Part shown: piece after piece, positions 7,060 to 51,232 of the stretch
Position numbering within the stretch: the first letter of the stretch is position 1
Layout: every line of letters starts with the position of its first letter
Assembly (NCBI GenBank): GCA_024639145.1
Contig: JAHEIZ010000003.1
Span: 105,333 to 169,332 of the forward strand
Source: Actinomycetes bacterium
GTDB taxonomy: Bacteria > Actinomycetota > Actinomycetes > S36-B12
Reading direction: 5' to 3'
DNA length: 64,000 nucleotides
Notes under the pieces: generated by a model
Databases searched by the model: none
Told to the model about the DNA's origin: nothing
Seen by the model: only the letters and a program-made list of their open reading frames with translations
Translations under genes and position numbers: made by a program

Positions 7060-7766
7060 GACTGTCCGTTCGCGAGGATGACCTTCTGCGCCACGGACTG
7101 TGTCGCGGAAGTACCCCCGATGGTGAACTGCACGGCACGAAGCGTGGCAATCTGCGCTGCCGTGAGGGTGCCGTTGACGGGGGGGACGAGCTCGACCATC
7201 GGCGGGGAAGGAATACCTGCCGTGGGCGTTCCGGCCTTGAAGTACCTCACGCTCAGAGTCGGCGTATTGGTCGTGCTCACCGGCACGAGCAGTCGCGTCG
7301 TGCACGTGGTATCCGCCGGCAGAGCGCGGCAGCCGTTGTTCACCGCCGCCGTGTAGATCGGGCGTCCGGTCGTCATGTCAGGTGCCCACGTCGACGTGAC
7401 GATGCCCTTCGCCGTCTTGGTCAGGGTGACCTTGTACGGAACTCGATCGGCCTTGCCGGCACCCGCGAAGGTGTAGAAGGTCACCACGGGCTGACCAGCC
7501 ACGGTGCCTGCGTAGTCGAATGAGGGCACGATCGGCGAGTTCGCATAGGGGTTGTCGGCATACCGAATGAGGCGGGATATCCATTCGGATGCGTTCTGCT
7601 GCTCCTGCTGCACGGAATTGCGGCCAGTGGTGTCACGAATACTGCGCACGCCACTGATCATGAAGATCGACGTGAGGATCATCAGCAGGCTGAAAATGCC
7701 CATCGCCACGATCAATTCGATCAGCGTGATTCCGTCGTCCTTGCCGTTCATGACGTCATGGCTCAT
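7056..7766 (-). CDS. PilW/PulJ-like type IV prepilin (minor pilin)
   Basis: 236 aa with a class-III prepilin leader: a short leader ending in Gly ('KDDG') then 'ITLIELIVAMGIFSLLMIL', with the conserved Glu at mature position 5. The PilD-type prepilin peptidase should cleave after Gly and methylate the new N-terminus. The C-terminal half has two Cys in 'CRALPADTTC'. It is coupled by ATGA overlaps to the PilV-like gene upstream and the PilX-like gene downstream, the common pilV-pilW-pilX order of minor-pilin priming operons. Confidence 0.85.
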   Translation of the reverse strand: MSHDVMNGKDDGITLIELIVAMGIFSLLMILTSIFMISGVRSIRDTTGRNSVQQEQQNASEWISRLIRYADNPYANSPIVPSFDYAGTVAGQPVVTFYTFAGAGKADRVPYKVTLTKTAKGIVTSTWAPDMTTGRPIYTAAVNNGCRALPADTTCTTRLLVPVSTTNTPTLSVRYFKAGTPTAGIPSPPMVELVPPVNGTLTAAQIATLRAVQFTIGGTSATQSVAQKVILANGQS

Positions 7767-9169
7767 GGCGTGCCACTTCCCGAGGGCGTAGCGGTCGGCG
7801 TCGGCGAGGGAGTCGGGATATCAAGGTTTGCAATCGGGAAACTCACCGTCACGCGAGCGCCCTTGGGATCAGTCGGAATTCCCGTAGGAGTCGGAGTAGG
7901 AGTGGGAGTCGGTGATGCCGACGGGCTCGCCGAAGCGACAGGGGCGGGTTCAAGCGTGACGACCTGGTTGGCCCCGGGCGCGGCAGCGGAAGTCAGAGTC
8001 CACTTGCCGTAGGGAAGCTCGACCCGAAGGACGCCCGTGGAATCCGTCGAGCCAAGGTCATACGTCGGTGGCGTCTTGCAGGGGCCCGTGGCTTCGGCGG
8101 CCGGCGTGGCGCGCACGAGTGCGTTCGCCGGCAACCCGCGCACGCGCACCGTCACTGCGTTCACAGGCGCAACGGTCTTGGCTCCCGGCGTCACCGCGTA
8201 CCAGGTGCGATTGATCGCCGTGGTTCGCGGAGCCGCGAAGCTCGCTGGGTCAGCGGCGATGCACGTACCGAGCCACGCCTGGTAGCCGCCGACCGATGGC
8301 CACAGGCTGCTGACGGTCTTGGGATATGCCGTGACCGCGACCGGGGAAATTGCCAGGGGGTCGAGTCCCATCGAGAGTGGAATCCCGGCCGGAATCGGGA
8401 AGTCGGTCGTGGAAGACGTGAATTCCATCGATGACGCGGCGGCGTACTCGAATGACATGCGCGTTGTCTGCGCGGCCACGACGGCGCTCGTGATGGTGGT
8501 GCCGTTCACGATTCGCGGAACGTATCCGCCGCGATTGACCGTGACCTGCCAGGACGCACTCGGAGCGAGCTTCGGAACGAAGACGCAGCCATCAGGGCCG
8601 GTGATGAATGTCGACGTGGCACCGGCCGCCGCCACATCACGCACCTGCAGTGTCACGCCGCTGACGGGGTTCGCGCGCTCATCTGCGACCTTGATCGCGA
8701 GCTGTCCGGTGTCGATGAGCGAGGAGTCATCACCCGGCGCAATGATCGTGTCGCTCACCTGCGGGTCGGAGATCGTCGCGCCGGAGACTTCCACGTGCAC
8801 GCGCATGTAAGCCTGGCCTGGTGCGGCAGCCTCGCACGCGTCGGTTGCCTGATTCAGTCCGACCCAATTGCTCGTGGTCGAGATCGTGAACACACCCTCG
8901 GGTGTCGTAGTCGTGCTCGTCGTGTTTCCGATGGTGATGAAGTCCGTCCCGAGCTCTCGCTGCCGCTCGATCTCCGAGCGGGCCAGGTTCGAGGCGTAGA
9001 CCCGATCGGAGTTCTCGCGCACGGTGCGAATCGCGGTGATGAGGATGCCGACTGTCGCCGTGGCCGTGAGGGCAAAGACCAAGGTCGCGACAAGGATCTC
9101 GACGAGTGTGAATCCCTCGTCACCTGACGGCGCGCCCTGCCGCTCGAGGTCGGCCCTGCTCCCGTTCAC
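7763..9169 (-). CDS. PilV-like type IV prepilin with long C-terminal extension
   Basis: The start is set at GTG 9169, preceded by GGAGGGAG, not at the track start 9430. This gives 468 aa. The prepilin leader 'APSGDEG' is followed by 'FTLVEILVATLVFALTATA' with Glu5. The extracellular part carries a carboxypeptidase-regulatory-like beta module ('LAIKVADERANPVSGVTLQV...GPDGCVF'), a second similar module near the C-terminus, then Pro/Thr-rich linkers (TPTPTPTP and PSPTPTAT). Usual PilV is 150-200 aa, so this looks like a modular surface-exposed minor pilin. It heads the operon with the PilW- and PilX-like genes. Confidence 0.82.
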   Translation of the reverse strand: MNGSRADLERQGAPSGDEGFTLVEILVATLVFALTATATVGILITAIRTVRENSDRVYASNLARSEIERQRELGTDFITIGNTTSTTTTPEGVFTISTTSNWVGLNQATDACEAAAPGQAYMRVHVEVSGATISDPQVSDTIIAPGDDSSLIDTGQLAIKVADERANPVSGVTLQVRDVAAAGATSTFITGPDGCVFVPKLAPSASWQVTVNRGGYVPRIVNGTTITSAVVAAQTTRMSFEYAAASSMEFTSSTTDFPIPAGIPLSMGLDPLAISPVAVTAYPKTVSSLWPSVGGYQAWLGTCIAADPASFAAPRTTAINRTWYAVTPGAKTVAPVNAVTVRVRGLPANALVRATPAAEATGPCKTPPTYDLGSTDSTGVLRVELPYGKWTLTSAAAPGANQVVTLEPAPVASASPSASPTPTPTPTPTGIPTDPKGARVTVSFPIANLDIPTPSPTPTATPSGSGTP

Positions 9170-9346
9170 CGAACTCCCTCCGCGCACGCAGATATCGGGG
9201 AATCTCCCCAGAGGGGTATCGGCTGAGGCCCGCGTGGAAGGTCGGCTGCCGGGCTGCAATTCCGACCCATATGTCGCATTTATCCGACACGGGTGTGGCG
9301 GGTGGGGTGATGGCCAGGGACAGCACAGGCGAGGTACCGTCAGTCC
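9170..9346. promoter_or_regulatory. Divergent intergenic region between minor-pilin operon and GGDEF/EAL gene
   Basis: A 177-bp region between two divergent genes, so promoters for both must lie here or just inside the coding ends. No convincing -10/-35 pair or repeat was found by eye. Confidence 0.4.
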
Positions 9347-11953
9347 ATGGCTTCCCCTGCCGGCCCGCTTCGGGCTGCCGGTCGCTGGCTCGCGCCCGCC
9401 ACCAGCGGCTCCGACCAGGCCACCTGTCACCTGCGCATCGGCGTGGTCGGCGTGGTCTTCGCCGGACTCTGGGCAGCCGCGATCATCGCCGCCTTTGGCT
9501 TCATGTACTCCGATATCGGCAACGAGATTCCCGGTCCGGATGTCCTGCTCGCCGGCATCGTCCTCGTGGCGATCAGCGTGTTCACCCCGCAGGCTCTGTT
9601 CCGCACCGGCACTGAGTCATCGACCAAGCGCATCCTGGCTTCGCCCACGCGTCCCATCGCACCGTGGAGTACGAGCACGATCTCGTTCAACGCGATCCTG
9701 GTCGGCGCCATGCTGGCGGGACTGTATGCGGAGCCTGTCATCGCCTTCCTGCTATTCAGCCTCGCCTACGTGATCCGCATGGCCGTGCTCACTCGACGCG
9801 ACGCGGTGCGGGATCCCAATTCGCGTTTCCACCAGCTCACCTCGGCATTCAGCGCGATGCTCATCGCTTCCATCGCGTACTCGATCGTGCGCCCCCTCGC
9901 TTCCGCGGTCACGCTGAACTTCTCCGTCATTCCCTTGCTACTCGCCGGGATCGTGGCCTTGTATCTCGGTCTCATCCTCAACGCGGTGGATCGCTGGGCG
10001 CGGTGCGAACGACACGGATGGGCCGCAGCACGCGACCTCATTGACGTACGACGGCTGCTCGTCGCCGCGGTCAGTGCCGCAATCGCCTGGATCGTCGCAA
10101 TGACAGGGGAAATCCTGCCTCGCATCGACGGCGACCCCACCGGCACGGCGCTTCCTGCTCTCGCTGCTCTCGGCGTATTTCTCGCGTGCTGGCTGCTCCT
10201 CTGGGCTCTCTCGATCAGCATCTGGCGCACTGAGGCCAAGCGCACTCTCTCACTCTGGCGCAGCCAGCAATCCGTGATTCTCACTCGACTCTCCGAAGGC
10301 TCGCTCGATCCTGATCTCGCCGCGAAGGCGGCACTGAACATCACGAGTCGGATGGCTGCAGTTGTCTTCGGCGCGACTCGAGTGCTGACCATTCACGACG
10401 ACGGAGATGGCTCGATCAGTCAAAGCCTGGTGCGCACTGATATCTACCCGGGCTCCCCCGAGACCCTCCCTGTCACCCCCGCCGGACGTTCAGGAATGCG
10501 CATCCCACTGAGCGTGGACAATCGCACGACAAGCAGCGTGACGATCAGCGACTGCCTGCTGCCCGGACGCTTCCTCATGCGCTCGCGGTCACTGGTCGAT
10601 GAGTTCAGCGAACTTGCGACCATTGGCCTGCTGTCACCGGAGCTGAGCCGGGGCGCGGACCGAAATGCGATTGCCTTTGCTTCCATGTTCGAGGGCAGCT
10701 GGCCGAACATGAACGCGCTGGATCAGGCCATGCTGAGCATGCGCGAGCGATTCGATCGCGCCCCGCACCTTTCCTCTCTCATTGTCGGCGTCTACGCGAT
10801 CAATGAGATCGCCGCACTGGCCGGCGGGCGACATGAGCATGCGGCCGTGTCGCACGTCATGCGCTCGACCCTCTCTTCCCCCCTGTTCAACGGAACCGAC
10901 GTCTTCGTGGCGTACGAGAGCCCCGGTCGCGTCTGGGTGGCGGTGAGCGGCGGTCCGATCATCCGCAACACGATTCAGCTGCTTCGCGACCTGCAGGATT
11001 CCCTCAACTCCTTCGGCCGCGCAGCTTCGAGCGCAACCGATCTCGAGGTGTTCGTGAGCGTCTCATTTGGCTACGCGGCACACCAGGTCGACGACCTGTC
11101 GCCCGAAGGCTTGATCCAGACCGCTCGAGATCGCCTCGCCGCCGACCAGTCCGCGCGCAATCCGCTCTCCGACCCCGACTTCAGCACCCTGGAGCTCACA
11201 CCGGAACTCTTCACTCGTACCGAGCCGACTCCCGTGACCGTCGACAGCCTGCTGGATGGCATGACGCGGGATCGGGGCACCGATGCCTTCATCACTGAGT
11301 CGCTACCTCTGCTCTCCACGGCCACTGGCGCGCACGAGGGGACACTGATCAGCGTCGGATGGGTGCGGGAATTTCGCTACTTCGACATGCGTGCGCCCGA
11401 GAACCTGCTGAAAGCAGTAAACCGCCAGCCGCATCTCGCTGCGCTGGCCGCCGAGATCTCGCTCGATGCCCTCGTATCCGAGCTTGACACGTCACCCATG
11501 TGCATGATTCGCATGCCCTCGGTGCTGCTGCACCCTGAAGCCGGCGAGCTGGCCCTGCCCAACCTGATCGTGCCCAAGCTCGATCGCATCCAGTGCCAGC
11601 GAACGGTGCTGCTCTTTGACGAAATCCCGGCCGGCGGCGGACAGACCCTGCGCATGCTCGCAGACAGAGGACTCAATATCGCCGTCACTGCGGCGGCTGC
11701 TGCATCCGCGAACTCCGGCGACCTGGCCGGTTGGTCGCGGTGGGCAATCGTGTTCCCGAGTCACGTCATGCAAGGCTCGCACGGCGTCGATGCGCTCACG
11801 ATCTCGCAGACCGCGAGTGCAGGCGCGTCGGCCGGCACACGCCTCATCGGAATGGTGATTGGCTCGATTGATGTACGAGCAGCGCAGGCCCAAGGCATCT
11901 CAGCCGTGATTGCCACACACGCCCACTCCGCAGAACGAGTAGAGCACTCCTGA
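9347..11953 (+). CDS. Membrane protein with degenerate GGDEF and EAL-like domains
   Basis: 868 aa. The first roughly 300 residues form about seven to eight membrane helices. A linker region follows, then a GGDEF-fold segment around residues 480-580 in which the signature is replaced ('GTDVFVAYESPGRVWVAVSGG'). The C-terminal part has EAL-fold hallmarks without the catalytic residues: no EAL or DDFG motif, with 'VLLFDEIPAGGGQTLRMLADRG' and 'IGMVIGSIDVRAAQAQGI' where active enzymes have catalytic segments. It is therefore probably a c-di-GMP receptor or a purely structural regulator rather than a cyclase or phosphodiesterase. Its position beside the pilus genes recalls FimX-type control of type IV pili. 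The start is ATG with a weak ribosome-binding site. Confidence 0.72.
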   Translation: MASPAGPLRAAGRWLAPATSGSDQATCHLRIGVVGVVFAGLWAAAIIAAFGFMYSDIGNEIPGPDVLLAGIVLVAISVFTPQALFRTGTESSTKRILASPTRPIAPWSTSTISFNAILVGAMLAGLYAEPVIAFLLFSLAYVIRMAVLTRRDAVRDPNSRFHQLTSAFSAMLIASIAYSIVRPLASAVTLNFSVIPLLLAGIVALYLGLILNAVDRWARCERHGWAAARDLIDVRRLLVAAVSAAIAWIVAMTGEILPRIDGDPTGTALPALAALGVFLACWLLLWALSISIWRTEAKRTLSLWRSQQSVILTRLSEGSLDPDLAAKAALNITSRMAAVVFGATRVLTIHDDGDGSISQSLVRTDIYPGSPETLPVTPAGRSGMRIPLSVDNRTTSSVTISDCLLPGRFLMRSRSLVDEFSELATIGLLSPELSRGADRNAIAFASMFEGSWPNMNALDQAMLSMRERFDRAPHLSSLIVGVYAINEIAALAGGRHEHAAVSHVMRSTLSSPLFNGTDVFVAYESPGRVWVAVSGGPIIRNTIQLLRDLQDSLNSFGRAASSATDLEVFVSVSFGYAAHQVDDLSPEGLIQTARDRLAADQSARNPLSDPDFSTLELTPELFTRTEPTPVTVDSLLDGMTRDRGTDAFITESLPLLSTATGAHEGTLISVGWVREFRYFDMRAPENLLKAVNRQPHLAALAAEISLDALVSELDTSPMCMIRMPSVLLHPEAGELALPNLIVPKLDRIQCQRTVLLFDEIPAGGGQTLRMLADRGLNIAVTAAAAASANSGDLAGWSRWAIVFPSHVMQGSHGVDALTISQTASAGASAGTRLIGMVIGSIDVRAAQAQGISAVIATHAHSAERVEHS

Positions 11954-35762: not shown

Positions 35763-37256
35763 TTAGCCGTGGGTGGGGAAGCCCAGGTTGATACCGCCGT
35801 GGCTCGGGTCGAGCCAGCGGCTCGTGACGACCTTGCCGCGCGTGAAGAAGTGCACGCCCTCGGTGCCATGGGCGTGGGAGTCACCGAACAGCGAGGCCTT
35901 CCAGCCACCAAAGGAGTAGTAGGCCATCGGCACGGGCACGGGCACGTTGATGCCCACCATGCCCACCTCGATCTCGTTCTGGAAGCGACGTGCCGCGCCG
36001 CCATCGTTGGTGAAGATCGCGGTGCCGTTGCCGTAGGGGTGATCGTTGATGAGCTGCACACCCGCCTCGTAGCTGGGTACGCGCACGACGCTGAGCACCG
36101 GACCGAAGATCTCCTCCTGGTAGATCGTCATGTCGGTGGTGACGTTGTCGAACAGTGTGGGGCCAAGCCAGTAGCCGTTGGCATCACCGTCGACGGTGAT
36201 GCCGCGTCCGTCCTCGACGAGAGTGGCACCGGCAGCCTCGCCTGCATCGACATAGGAGGCGACCTTGTCTCGGTGCACCTTCGTGACGAGCGGACCCATG
36301 TCGCAGTTGCGGCGGCCGTCGCCGGTCTTCAGGCTGCCCATGCGCTGCTGGATCTTCGCGACGAGCTCGTCGCCGATGGGATCGACCGCGAGCACGACCG
36401 AGATCGCCATGCAGCGCTCACCCGCCGAGCCGAAGCCAGCGTTGATCGCCTGGTCGGCTGCGAGATCGAGATCAGCATCCGGCAGAACCAGCATGTGGTT
36501 CTTCGCGCCGCCGAGTGCCTGCACGCGCTTGCCGTTGGCCGTTCCGCGCTCGTAGACGTACTTCGCGATCGGGGTTGAGCCGACGAACGAGACGCTCTTG
36601 ACGTCCTTGTTGTCGAGCAGTGCGTCGACGGACTCCTTGTCACCGTGCACGACGTTGAACACGCCGTCGGGCAGGCCCGCGTCCTTCCACATCTGAGCGA
36701 TGAGGTTGGTGGCGGATGGATCCTTCTCTGACGGCTTCACTACGACGGTGTTGCCCGAGGCGATGGCGATGGGGAAGAACCACATCGGGACCATGGCCGG
36801 GAAGTTGAAGGGCGAGATGATGCCGACGACGCCCAGGGGCTGGCGGATCGAGTAGACATCGATGCCGGTGGAGACACCCTCGGAGAAGCCGCCCTTGAGC
36901 AGGTGCGGGATGCCGCAGGCGAACTCGACGACCTCGAGGCCACGGGTGACCTCGCCGAGTGCATCGGAGAGCACCTTCCCGTGCTCCTCGGTGATGATCG
37001 CCGCCACCTCTTCCTTGCGGGCGTTGAGGATCTCGCGGAAGGCGAAGAGGATCGAAGCGCGCTTGGTCAGCGAGGTATCGCGCCAGCCCGGGAATGCGGC
37101 CTTGGCGGCGGCCACGGCGTCGTCGAGCACCGTGGCGCTGGCGAGGTCGACGGTCTTGGTGATCTCGCCGGTGGCGGGGTCGTAGACGTCGCCGGAGCGC
37201 TCAGGAGTGCCTTCCCAGAGCTTGCCGTTGATCCAGTGCGTGACGCGCGTGGCCAT
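35763..37256 (-). CDS. iolA: Methylmalonate-semialdehyde dehydrogenase (acylating)
   Basis: 497 aa from ATG 37256; the track start at 37319 overlaps iolD. ALDH fold: 'ISPFNFPAMVPMWFFPIAIASGNTVVVKPSEKDPS', the catalytic Glu region replaced as usual for MMSDH ('VQALGGAKNHMLVLPDAD'), and the catalytic Cys in 'FGSAGERCMAISVVLA'. It converts malonate semialdehyde to acetyl-CoA at the end of inositol breakdown and also serves valine degradation. Last gene of the iolE-iolD-iolA operon, ending at a strong terminator. Confidence 0.92.
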   Translation of the reverse strand: MATRVTHWINGKLWEGTPERSGDVYDPATGEITKTVDLASATVLDDAVAAAKAAFPGWRDTSLTKRASILFAFREILNARKEEVAAIITEEHGKVLSDALGEVTRGLEVVEFACGIPHLLKGGFSEGVSTGIDVYSIRQPLGVVGIISPFNFPAMVPMWFFPIAIASGNTVVVKPSEKDPSATNLIAQMWKDAGLPDGVFNVVHGDKESVDALLDNKDVKSVSFVGSTPIAKYVYERGTANGKRVQALGGAKNHMLVLPDADLDLAADQAINAGFGSAGERCMAISVVLAVDPIGDELVAKIQQRMGSLKTGDGRRNCDMGPLVTKVHRDKVASYVDAGEAAGATLVEDGRGITVDGDANGYWLGPTLFDNVTTDMTIYQEEIFGPVLSVVRVPSYEAGVQLINDHPYGNGTAIFTNDGGAARRFQNEIEVGMVGINVPVPVPMAYYSFGGWKASLFGDSHAHGTEGVHFFTRGKVVTSRWLDPSHGGINLGFPTHG

Positions 37257-37315
37257 GATTCCTGCTTCCGTGATTGTGAGGTGGTGCTGATCAAGGTCAA
37301 ATCTAATCGAGAATG

Positions 37316-39181
37316 TCAACGCTGTTGACTCTTGCCCTCCAGCAGGGCCTTTCGTGCCTCATTGACGGCGGGGCGGTGGCTTACCTCAGGCACTCCGACC
37401 TCCCAGAACGAGTCACCCTCGCTCCACTTGTGCTTCGCAACAGGTGCAACGATCACGTGCACCCCTGGTATTCCCTTGACGGCGTGAAGGGCAGCATCGA
37501 ACTCGGCGAGCGTGCCCGCCGAGATGACCTCGGCACCCATGCCCTCGGCGATCTTCACGAAGTCAATGACTGCCGGGTTCGGACGATCCTCGTCAGCCAG
37601 CATCGTGCGGAAGCTCGCTGCGCCGTGACCTATCTGCAGGCGCTCGATGACGTTGTAGCCCTGGTTGTCGCAGATGATGAGAACGAGGCTGGTGCTGTGA
37701 AGCACGGCACTGTAGACATCCATCGGAAGCATCATGAACGAGCCGTCACCGGTCATGCCGTACACAGTCGAGCCGGGACGCGATGCCGCACGCTCGAGGG
37801 CGGCGCCCCACGTGCCGCTGACCTCGTAGCCCATGCACGAGAAGCCGTACTCGCAGTCGAATGTCGCGATGCCCTTGCTCGGCCAGTTCATGACGAGCTC
37901 GCCCGGAAGACCGCCCGCGGCGGTCAGCACGTAGTCGTCGTCTCCTGCAATCGCATGAACGCGACCGATGAGCTGGGCGTAGGTCGGATCACTTGTCTCG
38001 GTGACGGCCGTGCGCTGCTCGATGAGGGCCACCTGCTTCGCGCGCGCACTGCGACCGGTGGCGAACCACTCGGCAGGCGCAGCCCAGCCCTCGAGGCCCA
38101 AGGTGAGTTCGGCGAGCGTCTCGCGCGCATCACCAACGACTGCCGTGCCCTGGCGCTTGAGCGCGTCGTACCTCGCGACGTTCACGCCGATTACCTTCAC
38201 GTTCGGATTGCGGAAGACCGTCCCCGACTCGGTGGTGAAATCCTGAAGTCGAGTGCCGAGGGCGATGACGAGATCAGCCTCGTGCGAGATCTCCTGGCCG
38301 GCAGTCTCACCGAAGACACCGATCGAGCCCGCGAATGCCGGATCACTTCCGAGCAGCGAGGACTTACCGGCGACAGTCTCCATCACCGGAATGCCGAAGG
38401 TGTTGGCGAATGCGGAGAGTTCGGCTTCGGCGAGTGCGTAGTGCACGCCGCCGCCGGCGACGATCATCGGCTTCTCCGCAGCACGAATGAGCGCGATTGC
38501 CTCGGCTACCTGATCACGTGAGGGGCGAGGGCGGGCGATGCGGTGCACGACGGTGTCGAAGAGGTCGGCCGGGAAGTCGTAGGCCATGGCCTGGACGTCC
38601 TGCGGGAGCGCGAGGGTGACCGGTCCGCAGTCAGCCGGGTCGAGCAGCGTGGCGATCGCCTGACGCAGTGTGGTCTTGAGCTGGGAGGGTGCGGTGATGC
38701 GATCCCAGTAACGACTGACGGCCTTCAGGGAGTCGTTCGCCGTGATGGTCGGATCACCGAAGTGCTCCAGCTGCTGCAGCACCGGATCAGGCTCGCGTGA
38801 GGTGAAGGTGTCGCCGAGCAGGAGAAGCAGCGGAAGACGGTTGGCGAGCGCGACGCCTGCGGCCGTGACGGTGTTGAGCGCACCGGGCCCGACAGACGTG
38901 GACACGGCCATGATCTGTCGACGCTGCGCTGCCTTGGCGTAGGCCACCGCAGCAAGGGCCATGCCCTGCTCGTTCTGTCCACGAAGCGTGGCGATTTCGT
39001 CCTTGTGCAACTCAAGCGACTCGCCGAGGCTCAGGGCATTTCCGTGGCCGAAGATCGCGAAGACTCCGGGCACCAGCGGGATGATCGCGCCGCTTCGATC
39101 GTCTTCCACCTTCTGCGCGATGAGGAATCGCACGATGGCGTCGGCGACAGTGGTGCGCACCGTGGCGCGGCCGGTGCTCAT
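37316..39181 (-). CDS. iolD: 3D-(3,5/4)-trihydroxycyclohexane-1,2-dione hydrolase
   Basis: 621 aa ThDP-dependent enzyme. The N-terminal pyrimidine domain has the catalytic-Glu region, the middle domain 'VIALGTRLQDFTTESGTVF', and the ThDP motif 'MTGDGSFMMLPMDVYSAVL...DNQGYN'. IolD opens the ring of trihydroxycyclohexanedione to 5-deoxy-glucuronate. The start overlaps the iolE stop (ATGA), and it ends 59 bp before iolA. Confidence 0.93.
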   Translation of the reverse strand: MSTGRATVRTTVADAIVRFLIAQKVEDDRSGAIIPLVPGVFAIFGHGNALSLGESLELHKDEIATLRGQNEQGMALAAVAYAKAAQRRQIMAVSTSVGPGALNTVTAAGVALANRLPLLLLLGDTFTSREPDPVLQQLEHFGDPTITANDSLKAVSRYWDRITAPSQLKTTLRQAIATLLDPADCGPVTLALPQDVQAMAYDFPADLFDTVVHRIARPRPSRDQVAEAIALIRAAEKPMIVAGGGVHYALAEAELSAFANTFGIPVMETVAGKSSLLGSDPAFAGSIGVFGETAGQEISHEADLVIALGTRLQDFTTESGTVFRNPNVKVIGVNVARYDALKRQGTAVVGDARETLAELTLGLEGWAAPAEWFATGRSARAKQVALIEQRTAVTETSDPTYAQLIGRVHAIAGDDDYVLTAAGGLPGELVMNWPSKGIATFDCEYGFSCMGYEVSGTWGAALERAASRPGSTVYGMTGDGSFMMLPMDVYSAVLHSTSLVLIICDNQGYNVIERLQIGHGAASFRTMLADEDRPNPAVIDFVKIAEGMGAEVISAGTLAEFDAALHAVKGIPGVHVIVAPVAKHKWSEGDSFWEVGVPEVSHRPAVNEARKALLEGKSQQR

Positions 39182-40083
39182 GCGCTGACCTTGATGAAGG
39201 GCACGACTTCGGTGAGCAGCCAGTCGACCGAGGTGCGCAGGTCGGCGACCGGGCCCTCATTCTCTGCGGGCTCAGAGGTGAGCGCGGCATCCTGCTCGTG
39301 CACGTACCAGCCGCGGTAGCCCTGATCCTCGAGCGAGAGCACGACCTCCTTGAGCGGCACGTCACCCTGGCCGAGCGGCGGGAACAGCCCGGCATCGACC
39401 GCCTGTCGAGTGGTGAGCTCACGTGCCATGACGCGAGCGGCGACGTCAAGACGGACGTCCTTGAGATGGCACAGCCCGATGCGATCGAAGTTCTGCTGGA
39501 CGAACTGAAGGGGGTCAGTGCCGCCGATCGCGAGGTGACCGGTGTCGATGCACCATTGCACGCTGGTGGTCTCGAGTGCGAGCTCGACATCGCGCTTGGT
39601 CTCGACCATCGTGTTCATGTGCGGGTGCAGCACCTGTGTCAGGCCGTGGCGTGCGCAGATGTCGTCGACCAGCAGCAGTGACTCATTGAGCACCTCGAAC
39701 CCGGCGCGATCGAGCGGGGTGGGCGTGCGCCAGTCGTAGTCCATGACCGCTGCTGTCACGAAGTACGTCGCACCGGTGCCCGCAAGGCGGGCCGCGGCTT
39801 TCTCGGCGATGGCCAGCATCTCGTCGCGTCGCGAGGCATCGTGCAATTGCAGTGAGACGAATCCTCCGAGCATGCGCGAGTCGTACTCTGCGAGCAGCGC
39901 GCGAGTCTGGCCATCATCAGCCGGGAAGAACCCGTCGTCGCCGAGCTCGATGGCATGCAGGCCGACGCTCGTCAGCTCTGCAAGGACCCGCCGGACGTCG
40001 AGCATGATGCCCCAGGAGGGCTGCTCGCAGACGCCCCAGGAGACAGGTGCGCCGGCTAGGCGATCGAGGAATGCAGTCGACAT
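39178..40083 (-). CDS. iolE: Inosose dehydratase (IolE-type TIM barrel)
   Basis: 301 aa from ATG 40083 with GGAGG five bases upstream; the track start at 40257 overlaps the divergent repressor gene. It is a xylose-isomerase-like TIM barrel: 'APVSWGVCEQPSWG', 'IELGDDGFFPADDGQTRALL' (EL-G..G..P), 'HPHMNTMVET', 'CIDTGHLAIGGTDP' and 'CHLKDVRLDVA' give the metal-binding Glu/Asp/His set. It dehydrates scyllo-inosose. First gene of the operon, with a LacI-type palindrome 20 bp before its start. Confidence 0.9.
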   Translation of the reverse strand: MSTAFLDRLAGAPVSWGVCEQPSWGIMLDVRRVLAELTSVGLHAIELGDDGFFPADDGQTRALLAEYDSRMLGGFVSLQLHDASRRDEMLAIAEKAAARLAGTGATYFVTAAVMDYDWRTPTPLDRAGFEVLNESLLLVDDICARHGLTQVLHPHMNTMVETKRDVELALETTSVQWCIDTGHLAIGGTDPLQFVQQNFDRIGLCHLKDVRLDVAARVMARELTTRQAVDAGLFPPLGQGDVPLKEVVLSLEDQGYRGWYVHEQDAALTSEPAENEGPVADLRTSVDWLLTEVVPFIKVSA

Positions 40084-40103: not shown

Positions 40104-40119
40104 ATTGGAGCGCTCCAAT
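40104..40119. promoter_or_regulatory. LacI-type operator, copy 1 (iolE promoter)
   Basis: A perfect 16-bp palindrome ATTGGAGCGCTCCAAT with central CG, typical for LacI-family operators and close to the CelR-type box TGGGAGCGCTCCCA. It lies between iolE and the divergent lacI gene; a possible -10 for iolE (TATAGG on the minus strand) is just upstream. Confidence 0.88.
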
Positions 40120-40193: not shown

Positions 40194-41192
40194 ATGACCA
40201 GGCCCACCATGGAGGACGTCGCGGCTGCTGCCGGTGTCTCGCGTTCCCTGGTCTCACTCGTCTTCCAGGACAGCCCCAAGGTCAGCGAGGCCAGTCGCTC
40301 GCGCGTTCTGGCCGAAGCCGAACGCCTGGGCTATCGGCCCAACGTGCTGGCCCGCCAGCTCGCCTCGAACCGCACGCGCACGATCGGGATCCTTCTCGAC
40401 GATCTGCACAACCCCTATTTCGCTGACGTCCTCGATGCCTTCGAGGCCGAAGCAGAGTCAGCCGGTTACCGAGCTCTCCTCGCCAACGGCCGCCGCGAGG
40501 GCGAGCGCGAGAGCGAGGCTCTTCGCACCTTCATCGATCATCGCGTTGACGGAGTGATCCTCGCCTCGCCGCGCATCTCCGATTCCGTGCTCACGTCGAT
40601 GTCGAAGATCGCACCGCTGGTCTGCGTCGAGCGTCGTGTCGATCTCCCCCGCGTCGACGTCGTCATGCATGACGAGCGCATCGGTGCACAGCTGGTGGTC
40701 GATCACCTGGTCAGTCTCGGCCACCGAGACATCGTCCATATCGACGGCGGCACCGGTGCAGGCGCTGCCGCCCGCCGCGATTGGTTCATGCAATCCATGC
40801 GCGATGCGGGGCTGGCGGCGTCGATGCGCGTGATTGGCGGAGAGTTCACTGAGCAAGCAGGTCGTGAGGCTGCTGAGCAACTGGTGCGCGGTGCGCTGCC
40901 CACCGCGATCTACTGCGCCAACGATGCTGTTGCCGCCGGCGTCGCGGCCGTGCTTCAGCGCGAGGGAATCTCGATTCCCAGCGATGTCTCTCTCATCGGA
41001 TACGACGACACCATGCTCGCGAAGCTCGACCTGCTCTCGCTCACCAGCGTGCGACAGCCGCTGGCAGAGATGGCGAAGGTGAGTGTCGATCTCATCAACC
41101 GCCGCATCGATAAGCCCCGCAGGGGCGCGGATATCGTTGAAATCGCACCGGCTTTGGTCACTCGACGCTCGACCGCGGCACCCCGCACCTAG
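40194..41192 (+). CDS. LacI-family repressor, likely regulator of the inositol genes
   Basis: 332 aa. The LacI HTH is 'MEDVAAAAGVSRSLVSLVFQ' and the hinge 'YRPNVLARQLASNRTRTIGILL', followed by a periplasmic-binding-protein-like effector domain ('YFADVLDAFEAEAESAGYRALLA' and 'AIYCANDAVAAGVAAVL'). It is divergent from iolE and shares the intergenic palindrome. It is the best candidate to bind all three TTGGAGCGCTCCAA-type sites. The effector is presumably inositol or a pathway intermediate. It converges with the second lacI gene, a 4-bp overlap. Confidence 0.92.
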   Translation: MTRPTMEDVAAAAGVSRSLVSLVFQDSPKVSEASRSRVLAEAERLGYRPNVLARQLASNRTRTIGILLDDLHNPYFADVLDAFEAEAESAGYRALLANGRREGERESEALRTFIDHRVDGVILASPRISDSVLTSMSKIAPLVCVERRVDLPRVDVVMHDERIGAQLVVDHLVSLGHRDIVHIDGGTGAGAAARRDWFMQSMRDAGLAASMRVIGGEFTEQAGREAAEQLVRGALPTAIYCANDAVAAGVAAVLQREGISIPSDVSLIGYDDTMLAKLDLLSLTSVRQPLAEMAKVSVDLINRRIDKPRRGADIVEIAPALVTRRSTAAPRT

Positions 41193-42439: not shown

Positions 42440-42464
42440 GTTGGAGCGCTCCATCCCCTATACA
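42440..42464 (+). promoter_or_regulatory. LacI-type operator, copy 2, with -10 box of the ABC transporter operon
   Basis: The core TGGAGCGCTCCA (12-bp perfect dyad; the outer bases differ from the other copies) is followed at once by TATACA (42459-42464), a good -10. The dyad would sit in the -35/-10 spacer, so repressor binding should block RNA polymerase. Confidence 0.75.
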
Positions 42465-46434: not shown

Positions 46435-47466
46435 TCAGGCCTTCGCGAGACGCTGCTCCATTTCGGCGATGGTGACCGGGCGGTTCTCTGCCATGCTCAG
46501 GTTCGCTGCCGCGGCAATGACCAGCGGCAGGCGTGCTTCGTCACCGGGCACCGGTGACGGTCCGTCGCCGCGCACGTAATTCGCGAAAGCAGCCCACTCG
46601 ACACGGTAGGCCTCCTGGTAGCGGCCGATGAACCAGTTCTCCAGTGGCTGGGCGACAGTTCCATGTGCGCCGGTGATCGTGCTGGTGTTCAGGCGCACGT
46701 TGTCGCTCTGCACCATGCCCAGGCTGCCGAAGGCTTCCACACGCTGGTCGTAGCCGTACACCGCGCGACGGCTGTTGTCGATCGTGCTGAGGGTGCCGTC
46801 AGCGTGGGTCATCATCACTACAGCGGTATCGATGTCACCGTGCTCGGCGAAACCCGGATCGACGCGCACGGCGCCTTGGGCGTACACGGAGACAACCGGG
46901 CTCCCGACAACGAACGGTGCCATGTCGAAGTCGTGCACCATCATGTCGAGGAAGAGTCCACCGGAACCCGCAACGTAAGACATGGGCGGCGGCTCGGGAT
47001 CACGTGAGGTCACGCGCACGATCTCAACCTGACCGATGTCACCGTTCATGACTGCCTTCTGGACGGCAGCATGCGAGGGATCGAAGCGGCGGTTGAAGCC
47101 GACCATGAACTTCACGCCATTGGCCTTCACGGCCGCGAGCGCGCGGTCAACGTCGGCGATGTCATTGGAGATCGGCTTCTCGCACATGATCGCCTTGCCG
47201 GCCTCGGCCGCGGCGATGATGGTGTCAACGTGCGTCGCAGTGGTGGTGCATACGCCCACTGCCTCGACCTCGGGCAGAGCCAGCACTTCAGCAACGGTGA
47301 GCGCCGGAACGCCGAGCTCTGCACCAACGTCTGTGGCGGTGGCGGCAAAGGCATCAGCTACCGCAACAAGACGTGTCTCGGGCACTGAGCGAGCGACGAG
47401 AGTCGCATGCATCTTGCCGATTCGGCCGACGCCGAGCATGGCGACGGCAACAGGTGTGGTGTTCAC
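46435..47466 (-). CDS. iolG: Myo-inositol 2-dehydrogenase
   Basis: 343 aa from GTG 47466 with GAGGAG upstream; the track start overlaps iolB. GFO/IDH/MocA family: Rossmann motif 'AMLGVGRIGKMHA', 'CEKPISND' with the catalytic Lys, and 'FLDMMVHDFDMAPFVVGS' with the catalytic Asp and His. It oxidises myo-inositol to scyllo-inosose with NAD, the first catabolic step. It is the last gene of the iolC operon. Confidence 0.9.
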   Translation of the reverse strand: MNTTPVAVAMLGVGRIGKMHATLVARSVPETRLVAVADAFAATATDVGAELGVPALTVAEVLALPEVEAVGVCTTTATHVDTIIAAAEAGKAIMCEKPISNDIADVDRALAAVKANGVKFMVGFNRRFDPSHAAVQKAVMNGDIGQVEIVRVTSRDPEPPPMSYVAGSGGLFLDMMVHDFDMAPFVVGSPVVSVYAQGAVRVDPGFAEHGDIDTAVVMMTHADGTLSTIDNSRRAVYGYDQRVEAFGSLGMVQSDNVRLNTSTITGAHGTVAQPLENWFIGRYQEAYRVEWAAFANYVRGDGPSPVPGDEARLPLVIAAAANLSMAENRPVTIAEMEQRLAKA

Positions 47467-47488
47467 GTGCTCCTCTTTCGATTGATTA

Positions 47489-48418
47489 CTAGGGAACCGG
47501 GGTAATGGGAACTCGGGGATCAGTGGCAACGCCATTCCAGGACTCGCGAATCCAGGCATGTGTCGGGTCATCGCAGAAATTCAGGGTGCGGTCATTCGGG
47601 CCGGCCAGAACGTTTAGGTAATACATCGGGTAGCCCGGCGCCGCGATGCTCGGACCGTGGTAACCGCGCGGCACCAGGAAGACATCGCCGTCTCGCACTT
47701 CGACAGTGGCATCGACAGGCATGCCTTGATCCTCGGGTGCGGTGTACGTGCGGTGAATGCCGAAGCCCTCCGCACTTCCATGCGGGCTGACCACGCCCTG
47801 CAGATCTTCTTTGCCAATGCGGAAGTAGTAGATCTCCTCGTTCTCCCACGGGCAGTCACCGATGCCATCGTGGCGATGCGGCGGGTAGCTCGACCAATTG
47901 CCGCCCGGCGTGAGCACCTCGCACCACACCAGGCGCTGGGCACCCGCGAAGGAATCGGGGTGACCCTGAAGGTTTACCTGTCGGGTCGATGTTCCAGCCC
48001 CGCGCACGGTGACCGGGTAACTGTCGGCTGCAAGATAGGCGGGCGGGAAGGCCTCCTCGGCCTTGGCCGTCGCGAGCGCAACTTCTCCGTCGGTGGACGC
48101 AGTGATGGTCACAATGGATCCGGTGGGTGCATAGACCCAATCCGTGACGCCCGCGAAGACGCCGGCGCGGCCCTGGAGCGTGAAGCTCACCGCTGCAGCA
48201 TCGCCAACAGCGACATCGACCGTGAGGCCCGTGGAGCTCAGCGGGATCACCGCTGCCTCGATGCCGTCGAGCACGATGCTGCGGGTCTCGCCCGCCACGA
48301 ATGAGAAAACCTGCAAGCCCGAGTAGCGCCAGCCCGCGTCAGCCGGCGTCAAGGTGATGAGCGAGCCGGCCTTGGCCAGGGAGCCTGCAGGCAGATGCCA
48401 CGGAACCTCCATCGTCAT
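47489..48418 (-). CDS. iolB: 5-deoxy-glucuronate isomerase
   Basis: 309 aa bicupin. 'WSSYPPHRHDG' holds the metal-binding histidines, followed by 'EEIYYFRIGKEDLQGVVSPHG' and 'GDVFLVPRGYHGPSIAAPGYPMYYLNVLAGP'. IolB isomerises 5-deoxy-glucuronate to 5-dehydro-2-deoxy-gluconate, the substrate of IolC. The start overlaps the stop of the aldolase-type gene. Confidence 0.93.
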   Translation of the reverse strand: MTMEVPWHLPAGSLAKAGSLITLTPADAGWRYSGLQVFSFVAGETRSIVLDGIEAAVIPLSSTGLTVDVAVGDAAAVSFTLQGRAGVFAGVTDWVYAPTGSIVTITASTDGEVALATAKAEEAFPPAYLAADSYPVTVRGAGTSTRQVNLQGHPDSFAGAQRLVWCEVLTPGGNWSSYPPHRHDGIGDCPWENEEIYYFRIGKEDLQGVVSPHGSAEGFGIHRTYTAPEDQGMPVDATVEVRDGDVFLVPRGYHGPSIAAPGYPMYYLNVLAGPNDRTLNFCDDPTHAWIRESWNGVATDPRVPITPVP

Positions 48419-49320
48419 GACGCGCCACCCGGGCGGACGAGCGCTGCGGCCCGCTGCACGGCCGAGGCAACATCACCGTCGGGCGGGAATAGCAGCGCAC
48501 GACCGATGACGAGACCGCGCACGGTGGGCTGCTCGAGGGCACGGGTCCAATCCGCGAATGCGGCATCCCAATTCGCACCGGGATCGCCGCCAAGGATCAG
48601 CACGGGCAGGGTCGAGACTGCGGCCGCCGCGGCGATATCGCTCCAGGCCGGCAGCTTGAGCCACGTGTATGCGCTCGTGGCGCCCATGCCTGCCGCGATT
48701 GCCGTAGCCCGCAGCAACTTCGCGTCGTCCTTGATCAGCTTCGCCTTGCCATCTGCGGTGATCTCATAAGGCAGCGGCTCGAGCATCGCGATGAGATCGC
48801 GATCTGCGAGTTCGGTGACTGCCTGTGCACAGGATTCGATGGTGCGCGCGACGCCCGGGTCGGTGTCTTCGATGCGAAGCAGCATCTTCGCACCGTCAAG
48901 ATTCATCGACGCTGTATGCGCGGCGTCGTAGGCCGTCATGCGATCGTCGAGTTCCCAGTTGGCGCCGACGATGCCGCCACGATTCATGGTGCCGAAGACG
49001 AGCTTGCCGTCGAGTGCGCCAAGCACGGCGAGATCTTCAAGGATGTCGGGCTGACCGAGAATTCCATCGACACCCGGTTGAGCCAATGCGATGACAATGC
49101 GGCCGAGCAGGGATGCGCGGTCGGCCATAGCCGAGGGATCGCTGCCCACACTCATCGCGCCGCGTGCCGGGTGATCGGCAGCGATGAGCATCATCTTGCC
49201 GTCAGCGGGAATCCCCCCGGCACGCACGCGATCTCGCAGGGCTGCGCGCACGGCAGCGGGATTCGTCACGCGGAGATTCGTGATGCGCTCGATGTCTGGT
49301 GCAGAGATAACGTTGCTCAT
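48415..49320 (-). CDS. Cgl0158-type TIM-barrel aldolase, probable DKP aldolase of the inositol pathway
   Basis: 301 aa from ATG 49320. TIM-barrel pattern 'MMLIAADHPARGAMSVGSDPSAMADRASLLGRI', 'DTDPGVARTIESCAQAV' and 'LPVLILGGDPGAN', resembling the Cgl0158 family found in actinobacterial inositol clusters. No iolJ-like class II aldolase is present, so this enzyme is the likely one to split 2-deoxy-5-keto-gluconate-6-phosphate into DHAP and malonate semialdehyde. It is coupled to iolC and iolB by ATGA overlaps. Confidence 0.78.
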   Translation of the reverse strand: MSNVISAPDIERITNLRVTNPAAVRAALRDRVRAGGIPADGKMMLIAADHPARGAMSVGSDPSAMADRASLLGRIVIALAQPGVDGILGQPDILEDLAVLGALDGKLVFGTMNRGGIVGANWELDDRMTAYDAAHTASMNLDGAKMLLRIEDTDPGVARTIESCAQAVTELADRDLIAMLEPLPYEITADGKAKLIKDDAKLLRATAIAAGMGATSAYTWLKLPAWSDIAAAAAVSTLPVLILGGDPGANWDAAFADWTRALEQPTVRGLVIGRALLFPPDGDVASAVQRAAALVRPGGAS

Positions 49321-50294
49321 GCGGGCACCTTTCGCCCTGCAGCAGCAAGGAGTTCTCGTACTTCGGCATCGGTGGGCATCGCATGACTGCAGAGCAGTCG
49401 CGAGGCGACGATCGCGCCTGCGGCATTGGCGTAGGTCACGGCATCGGCAGGCGACCATCCGCTGAGGATTCCGTGCACGAAGGATCCACCGAAGGCGTCA
49501 CCGGCGCCGAGCCCGCAGACGACGTCAATGGGAATGCCGGGTACCACCACTCGCTCATCCGCCGTCACGACAAGAACTCCATCGGCGCCCTGCTTCACGA
49601 TCGCGACCTTGACTCCGCGATCGAGGAAGCCGGCGGCGAAGTCGTCGGGCTTCGAATCAATCGGCAGGCCGAGAGCGACAGAGCATTCCTCGCGATTGCC
49701 GATGGTGATGGTCGCGTAATCGATGGCCGCACCGATTGCTGCGGTGGCCTCATCGCGCGAATTCCAGAACGACGGGCGGTAGTCGAGGTCATAGATCACG
49801 TGCTCGCGACGCTCGCGCACCTGCAGCGCGTGCAGCACTGTCGAAGTTGAAGGCTCACGCGAGAGCGCCGAGCCCGTGTACCAGAGGACATCGACTCCGC
49901 GGGCTACCTCATCGGAGAGATCAGCCGAAGTGAGCTGGAGATCAGGCGTATTGCCATCGCGATAGAACACGAGCTCAGGGTCACCGGGATTATCGAGGCC
50001 CGTGAGCACAACAGCGGTGCGCCCGCCGAGCATGCGGCTGATCCAGCGGGTGTCGACGCCGAGGGCCTCGCAGTCACGGATGGCGTAGGTGCCCAGGGAG
50101 TCATCGCCCACCTTGGTGAGAACGGCGGCACGATTGCCGAGTCGAGCCGCCGCGACGGCGACGTTGGTGGCCGAGCCGCCGACAGCCTTGGCGAAGGTCT
50201 GCTGGTCCTCGAGACCCTGGCCGAGTTCCTGGCCATAGATATCGACGCCAATGCGCCCGATCGTGAGGAGCTCGGGGAGCTGATCGCCTGCCAT
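49317..50294 (-). CDS. iolC: 5-dehydro-2-deoxygluconokinase
   Basis: 325 aa from ATG 50294 with GGAAGG upstream. PfkB fold: 'GGSATNVAVAAARLGNRAAVLTKVG' and the anion-hole motif 'GLGAGDAFGGSFVHGIL'. It phosphorylates 5-dehydro-2-deoxy-gluconate with ATP. It heads the iolC-aldolase-iolB-iolG operon and has the inositol-type palindrome 22 bp before its start. Confidence 0.93.
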   Translation of the reverse strand: MAGDQLPELLTIGRIGVDIYGQELGQGLEDQQTFAKAVGGSATNVAVAAARLGNRAAVLTKVGDDSLGTYAIRDCEALGVDTRWISRMLGGRTAVVLTGLDNPGDPELVFYRDGNTPDLQLTSADLSDEVARGVDVLWYTGSALSREPSTSTVLHALQVRERREHVIYDLDYRPSFWNSRDEATAAIGAAIDYATITIGNREECSVALGLPIDSKPDDFAAGFLDRGVKVAIVKQGADGVLVVTADERVVVPGIPIDVVCGLGAGDAFGGSFVHGILSGWSPADAVTYANAAGAIVASRLLCSHAMPTDAEVRELLAAAGRKVPA

Positions 50295-50315: not shown

Positions 50316-50331
50316 ATTGGAGCGCTCCAAT
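50316..50331. promoter_or_regulatory. LacI-type operator, copy 3 (iolC promoter)
   Basis: A perfect palindrome ATTGGAGCGCTCCAAT, identical over 16 bp to the copy before iolE. On the minus strand it overlaps TAAATT, a possible -10 for iolC. Confidence 0.88.
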
Positions 50332-50395: not shown

Positions 50396-51232
50396 TCAGG
50401 CCACGACCAGTGCGGTTCCGACCAGAACGACGATTAGTGCCAGCACTTCGGGTCTCGACATTCGCTCCTTGAGGAAGGCCCATGCCATCAATGCGGTCAC
50501 GATTGGGCTCAGCGAGGCCAGGACGGAGACCACGCCGACATCGCCCGAGTCAGCTGCCGAGTAGAAGGCCACGCTGCCCAAGCCGAGGGCCACGCCCGAG
50601 GCCGCCAAGGGGACGACAGTTCGAGAGCTCAGGCCTCCGAGGGATCGGGTGGCAAACACCATCGCCAGGCAGACAGCCACCTGCGGCACCTCGGACATCG
50701 TCATGGTCCCGTACAGATTCGTGCGCGAGCCGATGTCGAGCACCACCACGGCAGAGCCGTAGAACACGGCGGATCCGATGGCCAGCCAGACCGTCATCAG
50801 CCCACCGCTCAGCGGGCCCTTGGATCGAGCTCCGGGAAGCACGAACATGACGAGACCGATGAAGATCACGATGATTCCGATGCCCGCGATCACCGGTAGC
50901 GCTTCGCCGATGAGAAGCGAATAGGTCAGCGGGATCAGGACATTCGCCGGGCTGATGCCGGCGGCGACACCTAGCTTGCCCTTCGAGTAGGCCTGCAAGA
51001 TCAGCACATTGCCGCCCAGATTCAGCAGGCCGCCCAGCAGACCCGCGACCACGTCAGCGCGGTCGAAGACTAAGTCGCCTGTCAGGAGCCCGGTGAGCAC
51101 GTAGACGACACCGGCGACCCCGCCGCTGATGAGGATGACGGTCCAGTGCGAGATCTGGCGCCCGTATCGTCCAGTGCCGAAACTCCAGGCTCCCCACAGG
51201 AGAGCCGCCGAGAGAGCCAGGGCGGTATTCAC
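50396..51232 (-). CDS. EamA/DMT-superfamily transporter
   Basis: 278 aa, GTG start. Ten membrane helices in two EamA repeats: 'LSAALLWGAWSFGTGRYGRQISHWTVI' at the start and 'SPIVTALMAWAFLKERMSRPEVLALIVVLVGTALVVA' at the end. Substrate unknown. It ends 64 bp before the iolC operator region and is divergent from the AroE-family gene over 24 bp. Confidence 0.85.
   Translation of the reverse strand: MNTALALSAALLWGAWSFGTGRYGRQISHWTVILISGGVAGVVYVLTGLLTGDLVFDRADVVAGLLGGLLNLGGNVLILQAYSKGKLGVAAGISPANVLIPLTYSLLIGEALPVIAGIGIIVIFIGLVMFVLPGARSKGPLSGGLMTVWLAIGSAVFYGSAVVVLDIGSRTNLYGTMTMSEVPQVAVCLAMVFATRSLGGLSSRTVVPLAASGVALGLGSVAFYSAADSGDVGVVSVLASLSPIVTALMAWAFLKERMSRPEVLALIVVLVGTALVVA

What the first reader, a model, noticed from the sequence alone, without database searches (positions are those of the whole stretch)
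48415..49320. Cgl0158-type aldolase as the likely missing DKP-aldolase
iolA, B, C, D, E and G are all present but no classical iolJ. This coupled TIM-barrel gene is the only candidate for the aldolase step, which would assign a function to a little-studied family.
Basis: inference. Interest (0 to 1): 0.5.

Follow-up and report, generated by a model that had tools for sequence, protein, structure and literature searches.

The report
Probable missing inositol-pathway aldolase
A gene of a structurally solved but functionally unassigned protein family (Cgl0159) sits inside the inositol-degradation operon of this actinobacterium and of almost every actinobacterium that carries the family, and it has the fold and catalytic-type residues of an aldolase, so it is very probably the enzyme for the one pathway step that had no gene in these bacteria.

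Summary
The gene is real and on the minus strand (48415-49320, 301 aa). It is Cgl0159-like (Pfam PF22649, 355 bits), not Cgl0158, which is iolC. It overlaps iolC and iolB by 4 bp each. An exact 14-bp palindrome precedes both iolC and iolE, with a one-mismatch copy before the transporter operon. iolA, B, C, D and G are present; iolE scores below its model's cutoff. (1) In 297 Actinomycetota genomes all 29 with full-length Cgl0159 also have IolD, against 0 of 245 without IolD; in 374 Actinomycetes, 142 of 142 (two with iolD cut by a contig end). (2) None of those 29 carries the IolC-DUF2090 fusion, the aldolase proposed in 2022. (3) In 76 of 80 loci from named genomes iolC lies close by, almost always directly upstream. 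(4) The model (pLDDT 93.7) matches class I Schiff-base DHAP aldolases; invariant K145, E181 and K222 lie on strands 4, 5 and 6. (5) The genome's only class II aldolase is the glycolytic type; DUF2090 is absent. A second class I aldolase lies in a separate cassette. No activity has been shown.

The parts
48415..49320 (-). Cgl0159-family gene, 301 aa, predicted class I 2-deoxy-5-keto-D-gluconate-6-phosphate (DKGP) aldolase; K145, E181, K222 invariant
49317..50294 (-). iolC, 5-dehydro-2-deoxygluconokinase, kinase domain only (no DUF2090 fusion); ORF listed to 50483, likely ATG at 50294; stop overlaps the Cgl0159 start by 4 bp
   Evidence: (TIGR04382 330.6 bits, cutoff 300)
47489..48418 (-). iolB, 5-deoxy-glucuronate isomerase; start overlaps the Cgl0159 stop by 4 bp
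   Evidence: (TIGR04378 236.6 bits, cutoff 205)
46435..47571 (-). iolG, inositol 2-dehydrogenase (ORF; true start probably near 47466)
   Evidence: TIGR04380 398.5 bits, cutoff 355
39178..40083 (-). iolE-like gene (inosose dehydratase family, below equivalog cutoff); ORF listed to 40257, likely ATG at 40083
37316..39181 (-). iolD, trihydroxycyclohexane-1,2-dione acylhydrolase
   Evidence: TIGR04377 740 bits, cutoff 715
35763..37319 (-). iolA/mmsA, methylmalonate-semialdehyde dehydrogenase
   Evidence: TIGR01722 698 bits, cutoff 448.5
50317..50330 (.). operator-like palindrome TTGGAGCGCTCCAA, 22 bp upstream of the likely iolC start of the iolC-cgl0159-iolB-iolG operon
   Evidence: 3 sites with at most 1 mismatch in the window; 0.01 expected
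40105..40118 (.). identical palindrome between iolE and the divergent LacI-type regulator gene
42441..42454 (.). same palindrome with one mismatch, upstream of the sugar-type ABC transporter operon
40194..41192 (+). LacI-family regulator, candidate for binding the palindrome (binding not tested)

Best explanation
The gene encodes the DKGP aldolase of myo-inositol catabolism in this actinobacterium and in most iol-positive Actinomycetes. It is a class I (Schiff-base) aldolase, with no detectable sequence relation to IolJ. IolC phosphorylates 2-deoxy-5-keto-D-gluconate; the Cgl0159 protein then cleaves the 6-phosphate between C3 and C4 to dihydroxyacetone phosphate and malonate semialdehyde, and IolA takes the latter to acetyl-CoA. 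Proposed mechanism: K222 on strand 6 forms the imine with the C5 ketone, E181 (strand 5) and K145 (strand 4) act in proton transfer, glycine/arginine motifs on strands 7 and 8 (G244-G245, G273-R274) hold the phosphate, and other invariant arginines hold the C1 carboxylate. Shown here: the gene, its operon, co-occurrence, exclusion of DUF2090, predicted fold, residue invariance and strand positions. Inferred: the reaction, the imine lysine, substrate contacts and regulation by LacI.
For: Coupled iolC-cgl0159-iolB gene order and a shared palindrome at three iol promoters, 0.01 expected. Co-occurrence with IolD: 29/29 versus 0/245; 142/142 in a larger, partly overlapping sample, two of them with a contig-cut iolD fragment. 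Two genomes with two family copies also have two IolD (G124, G154). Exclusion of DUF2090: no overlap between 29 and 10 IolD+ genomes. Other aldolases in the iol cluster of some genomes lacking both: LacD/YihT type in G067, G224, G236. Synteny in 80 loci from named genomes: iolC in 76, iolB in 75, iolD in 73. Fold: best hits after 3FOK are class I DHAP-type aldolases, including one solved covalently bound to DHAP and LacD with its DHAP carbanion. Profile alignment with the LacD-like proteins over 224 columns pairs K145/E181/K222 with K/E/K; all three are invariant in 78 sequences. The genome has no other iol-linked aldolase. Literature gap: PMC6741124, PMC9007349.
Against: No enzyme assay, mutant or ligand-bound structure was found. 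Genome counts are not independent, since relatives share history. The profile-profile match to LacD-like proteins is moderate (probability 71.7%, E 3.5e-5) and to DUF2090 weak (37%, C-terminal part only). The residue mapping to solved LacD/YihT is by alignment, not superposition. 13 of 52 IolD+ genomes in the first sample have neither Cgl0159 nor DUF2090; three have a LacD-type gene in the cluster and one has extra class II aldolases, so nine have no assigned aldolase in the cluster. One copy (Nonomuraea endophytica, L154) lies away from iol genes. The own genome has a second class I aldolase of unknown substrate.
Confidence: 0.87

Rival explanations
1. Cgl0159 is an aldolase or lyase acting on a different intermediate (another inositol isomer or a side product), and the central DKGP step is done by a general aldolase such as the glycolytic class II enzyme.
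For: The glycolytic class IIA aldolase is present. One family copy lies beside a Gfo/Idh dehydrogenase without other iol genes (L154), so some members may have another substrate.
Against: The family tracks the core pathway (IolD) without a true exception and sits next to iolC, the kinase that makes the aldolase substrate. Genomes with DUF2090 lack it.
Confidence: 0.07
2. The DKGP aldolase of this genome is the DeoC/DhnA-type class I aldolase on contig C14, and Cgl0159 has an accessory role.
For: It is a class I aldolase with no assigned substrate in the same genome.
Against: It lies in its own LacI-PfkB kinase-Gfo/Idh-aldolase cassette, and the only near-copy of the iol palindrome in that 14-kb stretch has 2 mismatches and is no more than chance gives.
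Confidence: 0.03
3. Cgl0159 is not an aldolase at all but a TIM-barrel isomerase, epimerase or lactonase accessory to inositol breakdown.
For: TIM barrels are versatile; fold similarity to the aldolases is at 12-18% identity with TM-scores of about 0.54-0.68 on the query.
Against: All listed best hits other than 3FOK itself belong to the class I aldolase superfamily (the LsrF thiolase included), and the strand-6 lysine with strand-4 lysine and strand-5 glutamate is invariant in 78 sequences. The known isomerase and dehydratase steps of the pathway have their own genes here.
Confidence: 0.03

Closest known systems
Cgl0159 of Corynebacterium glutamicum (PDB 3FOK; Pfam PF22649)
   Same: Same family: 2.6e-77 by sequence, TM 0.94 with 46% identity over the fold; the neighbour Cgl0158 is iolC.
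   Different: No function assigned in the PDB entry; its counterpart locus cg0198 is called a conserved hypothetical protein in PMC4609165 (that cg0198 equals Cgl0159 follows from the gene order cg0197/Cgl0158 iolC). No biochemical difference is known.
IolC-DUF2090 fusion aldolase (PF09863; NCBIfam NF047869)
   Same: Proposed to do the same step, fused to IolC, with LacD-type Lys and Glu (PMC9007349); shares the K...E...KLP residue order.
   Different: The DUF2090 model does not match; separate protein instead of a fusion; the two do not occur together in any IolD+ genome of the first sample.
Class I tagatose-1,6-bisphosphate aldolase LacD and sulfofructose-phosphate aldolase YihT (PF01791 side)
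   Same: TIM-barrel class I aldolases producing DHAP-type fragments; collinear profile alignment with LacD/YihT-like relatives found in iol clusters; fold match.
   Different: PF01791 does not hit the protein; about 12-18% identity; different substrate; longer stretch between the Glu and the strand-6 Lys (41 residues against 32 in the iol-cluster LacD-like protein of G236).
IolJ of Bacillus subtilis (class II, metal-dependent, PF01116)
   Same: Same proposed reaction.
   Different: Profile comparison with class II aldolases gives no relation (probability 0.5%); Cgl0159 is class I by fold.
Archaeal-type class I FBA and ADH synthase (DhnA type; 1W8S, 2QJG)
   Same: Closest folds after 3FOK; Schiff-base DHAP chemistry.
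   Different: 12-18% identity; other substrates.

Membership tests
Pfam PF22649 Cgl0159-like | Score over the gathering cutoff across the full profile | tested here: met
   355 bits against 27, profile 1-251 of 251
Class I (Schiff-base) DHAP aldolase superfamily | (beta/alpha)8 barrel most similar to class I aldolases | tested here: met
   pLDDT 93.7; best PDB hits after 3FOK are MJ0400 ADH synthase, archaeal FBA, YihT, LacD, LsrF
Class I (Schiff-base) DHAP aldolase superfamily | Invariant lysine on strand 6, with Lys on strand 4 and acid on strand 5 | tested here: met
   K222, K145, E181 invariant in 78 sequences; strands 219-224, 143-150, 177-187
Class I (Schiff-base) DHAP aldolase superfamily | Imine formation with a ketose phosphate or DHAP | not testable with these tools
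   needs borohydride trapping or a crystal soak
LacD/DeoC family (PF01791) | Match to the Pfam model | tested here: not met
   only PF22649 reported; relation seen only profile-to-profile, probability 71.7%
DUF2090 / IolC-DUF2090 aldolase (PF09863) | DUF2090 domain, fused to IolC | tested here: not met
   no match in the whole genome; the protein hits PF22649 only
IolJ, class II aldolase (PF01116) | Match to the class II FBA model | tested here: not met
   no Pfam hit; profile comparison probability 0.5%
DKGP aldolase (EC 4.1.2.29) by function | Genetic linkage to iolC/B/D and occurrence only with the pathway | tested here: met
DKGP aldolase (EC 4.1.2.29) by function | Cleavage of DKGP to DHAP and malonate semialdehyde | not testable with these tools
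   needs enzyme assay

The most novel reading that the evidence does not exclude
Inositol-degrading bacteria have filled the DKGP aldolase step several independent times: class II IolJ, class I DUF2090 fused to IolC, class I Cgl0159 beside IolC in most Actinomycetes, LacD/YihT-type enzymes in some other actinobacteria, and at least one further unrecognised type in clusters that have none of these. Cgl0159 would then be the dominant form in Actinomycetes and a distinct class I aldolase family.
Probability: 0.6. Interest if true: 0.62.

Novelty: new variant of a known kind. Interest (0 to 1): 0.55.

Why it matters
The aldolase of myo-inositol catabolism is a stated gap: a genome paper on Gaiella occulta and Solirubrobacter soli found iolABCDEG but no iolJ and suggested a not yet annotated aldolase (PMC6741124), and a large fitness study left 8 of 15 inositol users with neither IolJ nor DUF2090 (PMC9007349). 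Here 140 of 170 IolD-positive Actinomycetes in one sample carry Cgl0159, so one assay would give a function to a solved but unassigned structure (3FOK) and to a whole Pfam family, and close the pathway in many actinobacteria including the industrial species C. glutamicum.

Tried and rejected
Class II/IolJ homology: rejected. DUF2090 fusion in this genome: absent. Glycolytic aldolase as a hidden IolJ: it scores over the class IIA FBA equivalog cutoff, so set aside. Weak second PF22649 hit on contig C88 (18.6 bits, one stop inside): below cutoff, set aside. Weak PF22649 hits of about 19-34 bits in other genomes were left out of the counts because scores are sharply split from the full-length ones; several of those frames are about 275 aa and may be other class I aldolases, which was not checked. 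Two apparent exceptions (G414, G467) were resolved: iolD runs off the contig end. A weak hit in G446 is an internally deleted remnant between iolC and iolB, lacking the part equivalent to model positions 52-272. A within-genus swap of Cgl0159 and DUF2090 (G185 against G175/G217) was checked, but the kinases are only about 40% identical and G185 rests on a 3.2-kb contig, so it is not used as a clean replacement case. The 2006 and 2013 C. glutamicum inositol papers are not held, so an earlier guess at this function there cannot be excluded. The text 'Cgl0159' occurs in no held paper.

Full report
What is there. The coordinates hold an intact gene of 301 residues on the minus strand. It matches Pfam PF22649 'Cgl0159-like' over the whole profile with 355 bits, no NCBIfam model, and the solved but unassigned protein Cgl0159 of C. 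glutamicum, PDB 3FOK, at E 2.6e-77. The gene overlaps iolC upstream and iolB downstream by ATGA, so the order is iolC-cgl0159-iolB-iolG. IolC here is a kinase without a DUF2090 domain. iolA and iolD, with an iolE-like gene, lie several kb away on the same strand; iolE scores below its equivalog cutoff (137 against 290).

Regulatory link. A perfect 14-bp palindrome, TTGGAGCGCTCCAA, lies upstream of iolC (50317-50330), between iolE and a divergent LacI-type regulator (40105-40118), and, with one mismatch, before a sugar-type ABC transporter (42441-42454). Three sites with at most one mismatch were found against 0.01 expected in shuffles. The pattern was chosen after seeing the iolC copy, so the expectation applies to the other two. 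It suggests, but does not prove, common control.

Is the aldolase step otherwise filled? The assembled genome (2.5 Mb, about 95% complete) has one class II aldolase, of the glycolytic class IIA type, no DUF2090, and one DeoC/DhnA-type class I aldolase on another contig, in a separate LacI-PfkB-Gfo/Idh-aldolase cassette. So the gene is the best candidate, not strictly the only one. An iolJ on the missing 5% cannot be excluded.

Co-occurrence. In 297 Actinomycetota genomes, full-length Cgl0159 (over 350 bits) is in 29, all among the 52 with IolD, and in none of the 245 without (Fisher p 2.5e-26, which ignores relatedness). In 374 Actinomycetes, a partly overlapping sample, 142 have it and 170 have IolD; the two seeming exceptions have iolD cut by the contig end behind an iolC-cgl0159-iolB run. 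G124 and G154 have two Cgl0159 and two IolD.

Replacement. Full-length DUF2090, which Price and colleagues proposed as the alternative aldolase (PMC9007349), occurs in 10 IolD+ genomes, none with Cgl0159 (p 7e-5, same caveat). DUF2090 was not searched in the second sample. Of the 13 IolD+ genomes with neither, three have a LacD/YihT-type aldolase beside iolB (G067, G224, G236) and G286 has two extra class II aldolases elsewhere. G056 has a class I FBA some 8 kb from its iol genes. The rest are unexplained; a partial look at their unannotated frames gave transporters, regulators and dehydrogenases only. In G446 the slot between iolC and iolB holds a Cgl0159 remnant with its middle deleted.

Gene order in named genomes. 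Of the 80 best of 557 loci in GTDB species genomes, 76 have iolC, 75 iolB and 73 iolD within 10 kb; iolC is nearly always directly upstream on the same strand. Exceptions: L106 (Cutibacterium avidum, iolB and iolD but no iolC nearby), L137 and L168 (short contigs), L154 (Nonomuraea endophytica, next to a Gfo/Idh gene only). The 80 are the closest relatives, so this is not an unbiased draw.

Fold and residues. AlphaFold2 with 64 sequences gives pLDDT 93.7 and a barrel with strands at 43-48, 86-89, 106-111, 143-150, 177-187, 219-224, 240-243 and 267-272. Foldseek finds 3FOK first (TM 0.94), then class I aldolases: ADH synthase, archaeal FBA, YihT, LacD, LsrF. K145, E181 and K222 sit on strands 4, 5 and 6, and are invariant in 78 sequences together with D49, H50, nine arginines including R53, R68, R114, R127, R149 and R274, and G244, G245 and G273. 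hhalign against the LacD-like proteins of iol clusters aligns 224 columns (probability 71.7%, E 3.5e-5) and pairs the three residues with K, E and K. PMC9007349 names K126 and E164 as the catalytic residues of LacD; that the strand-6 lysine forms the imine in this superfamily rests on established knowledge, not on a test here. Class II aldolases give no relation (0.5%).

Mechanism. The substrate has a ketone at C5 next to the 6-phosphate, so its C4-C6 half is released as DHAP, as in the fold neighbours. The malonate semialdehyde half carries the carboxylate; the many invariant arginines would suit a substrate with phosphate and carboxylate. These assignments are inference.

Known or new. C. 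glutamicum has cg0197-cg0207 as an inositol operon under IolR, and many genes of that cluster are needed for growth on inositol (PMC9603128, PMC7356990). No held paper names Cgl0159, PMC4609165 calls cg0198 a conserved hypothetical protein, and PMC6741124 states the missing-iolJ problem. The two primary C. glutamicum papers could not be read, so an earlier tentative annotation may exist. I file it as a new variant of a known kind: a class I family for a known reaction otherwise done by IolJ or DUF2090.

Noticed in passing
window 40105-40118, 42441-42454, 50317-50330: Three copies of the palindrome TTGGAGCGCTCCAA (one with a mismatch) at the iolE/lacI, ABC transporter and iolC promoters, a likely LacI-type operator of an inositol regulon.
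   Followed up: partly
L097:6218-7036 (-), L098:3136-4023 (-), L090:12465-13388 (+): LacD/YihT-type class I aldolase genes beside iolB in iol clusters of actinobacteria that lack Cgl0159 and DUF2090; possibly a further type of DKGP aldolase.
   Followed up: partly
L186:5894-6874 (+), genome G446: Between iolC and iolB lies a Cgl0159 remnant: the N-terminal end (model 8-51) runs straight into the C-terminal end (273-295), the catalytic middle deleted, in an IolD-positive genome.
   Followed up: partly
L154 (Nonomuraea endophytica), 9905-10765: A Cgl0159 copy away from iolB, iolC and iolD, directly after a Gfo/Idh dehydrogenase; its substrate may differ.
   Followed up: partly
L198 (own genome, contig C14), 3143-7190: Compact cassette LacI - PfkB kinase - Gfo/Idh dehydrogenase - DeoC/DhnA-type class I aldolase, an uncharacterised sugar pathway candidate.
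   Followed up: partly
window 50396-51232 (-): EamA-family transporter gene directly upstream of iolC on the same strand, ending before the iolC palindrome; a possible extra transporter of the cluster.
   Followed up: no
L106 (Cutibacterium avidum), 7762-10858: Cgl0159 starts the iol operon without iolC beside it, with a divergent GntR-type regulator gene and a transaldolase-like gene next door (read from the translations only).
   Followed up: no
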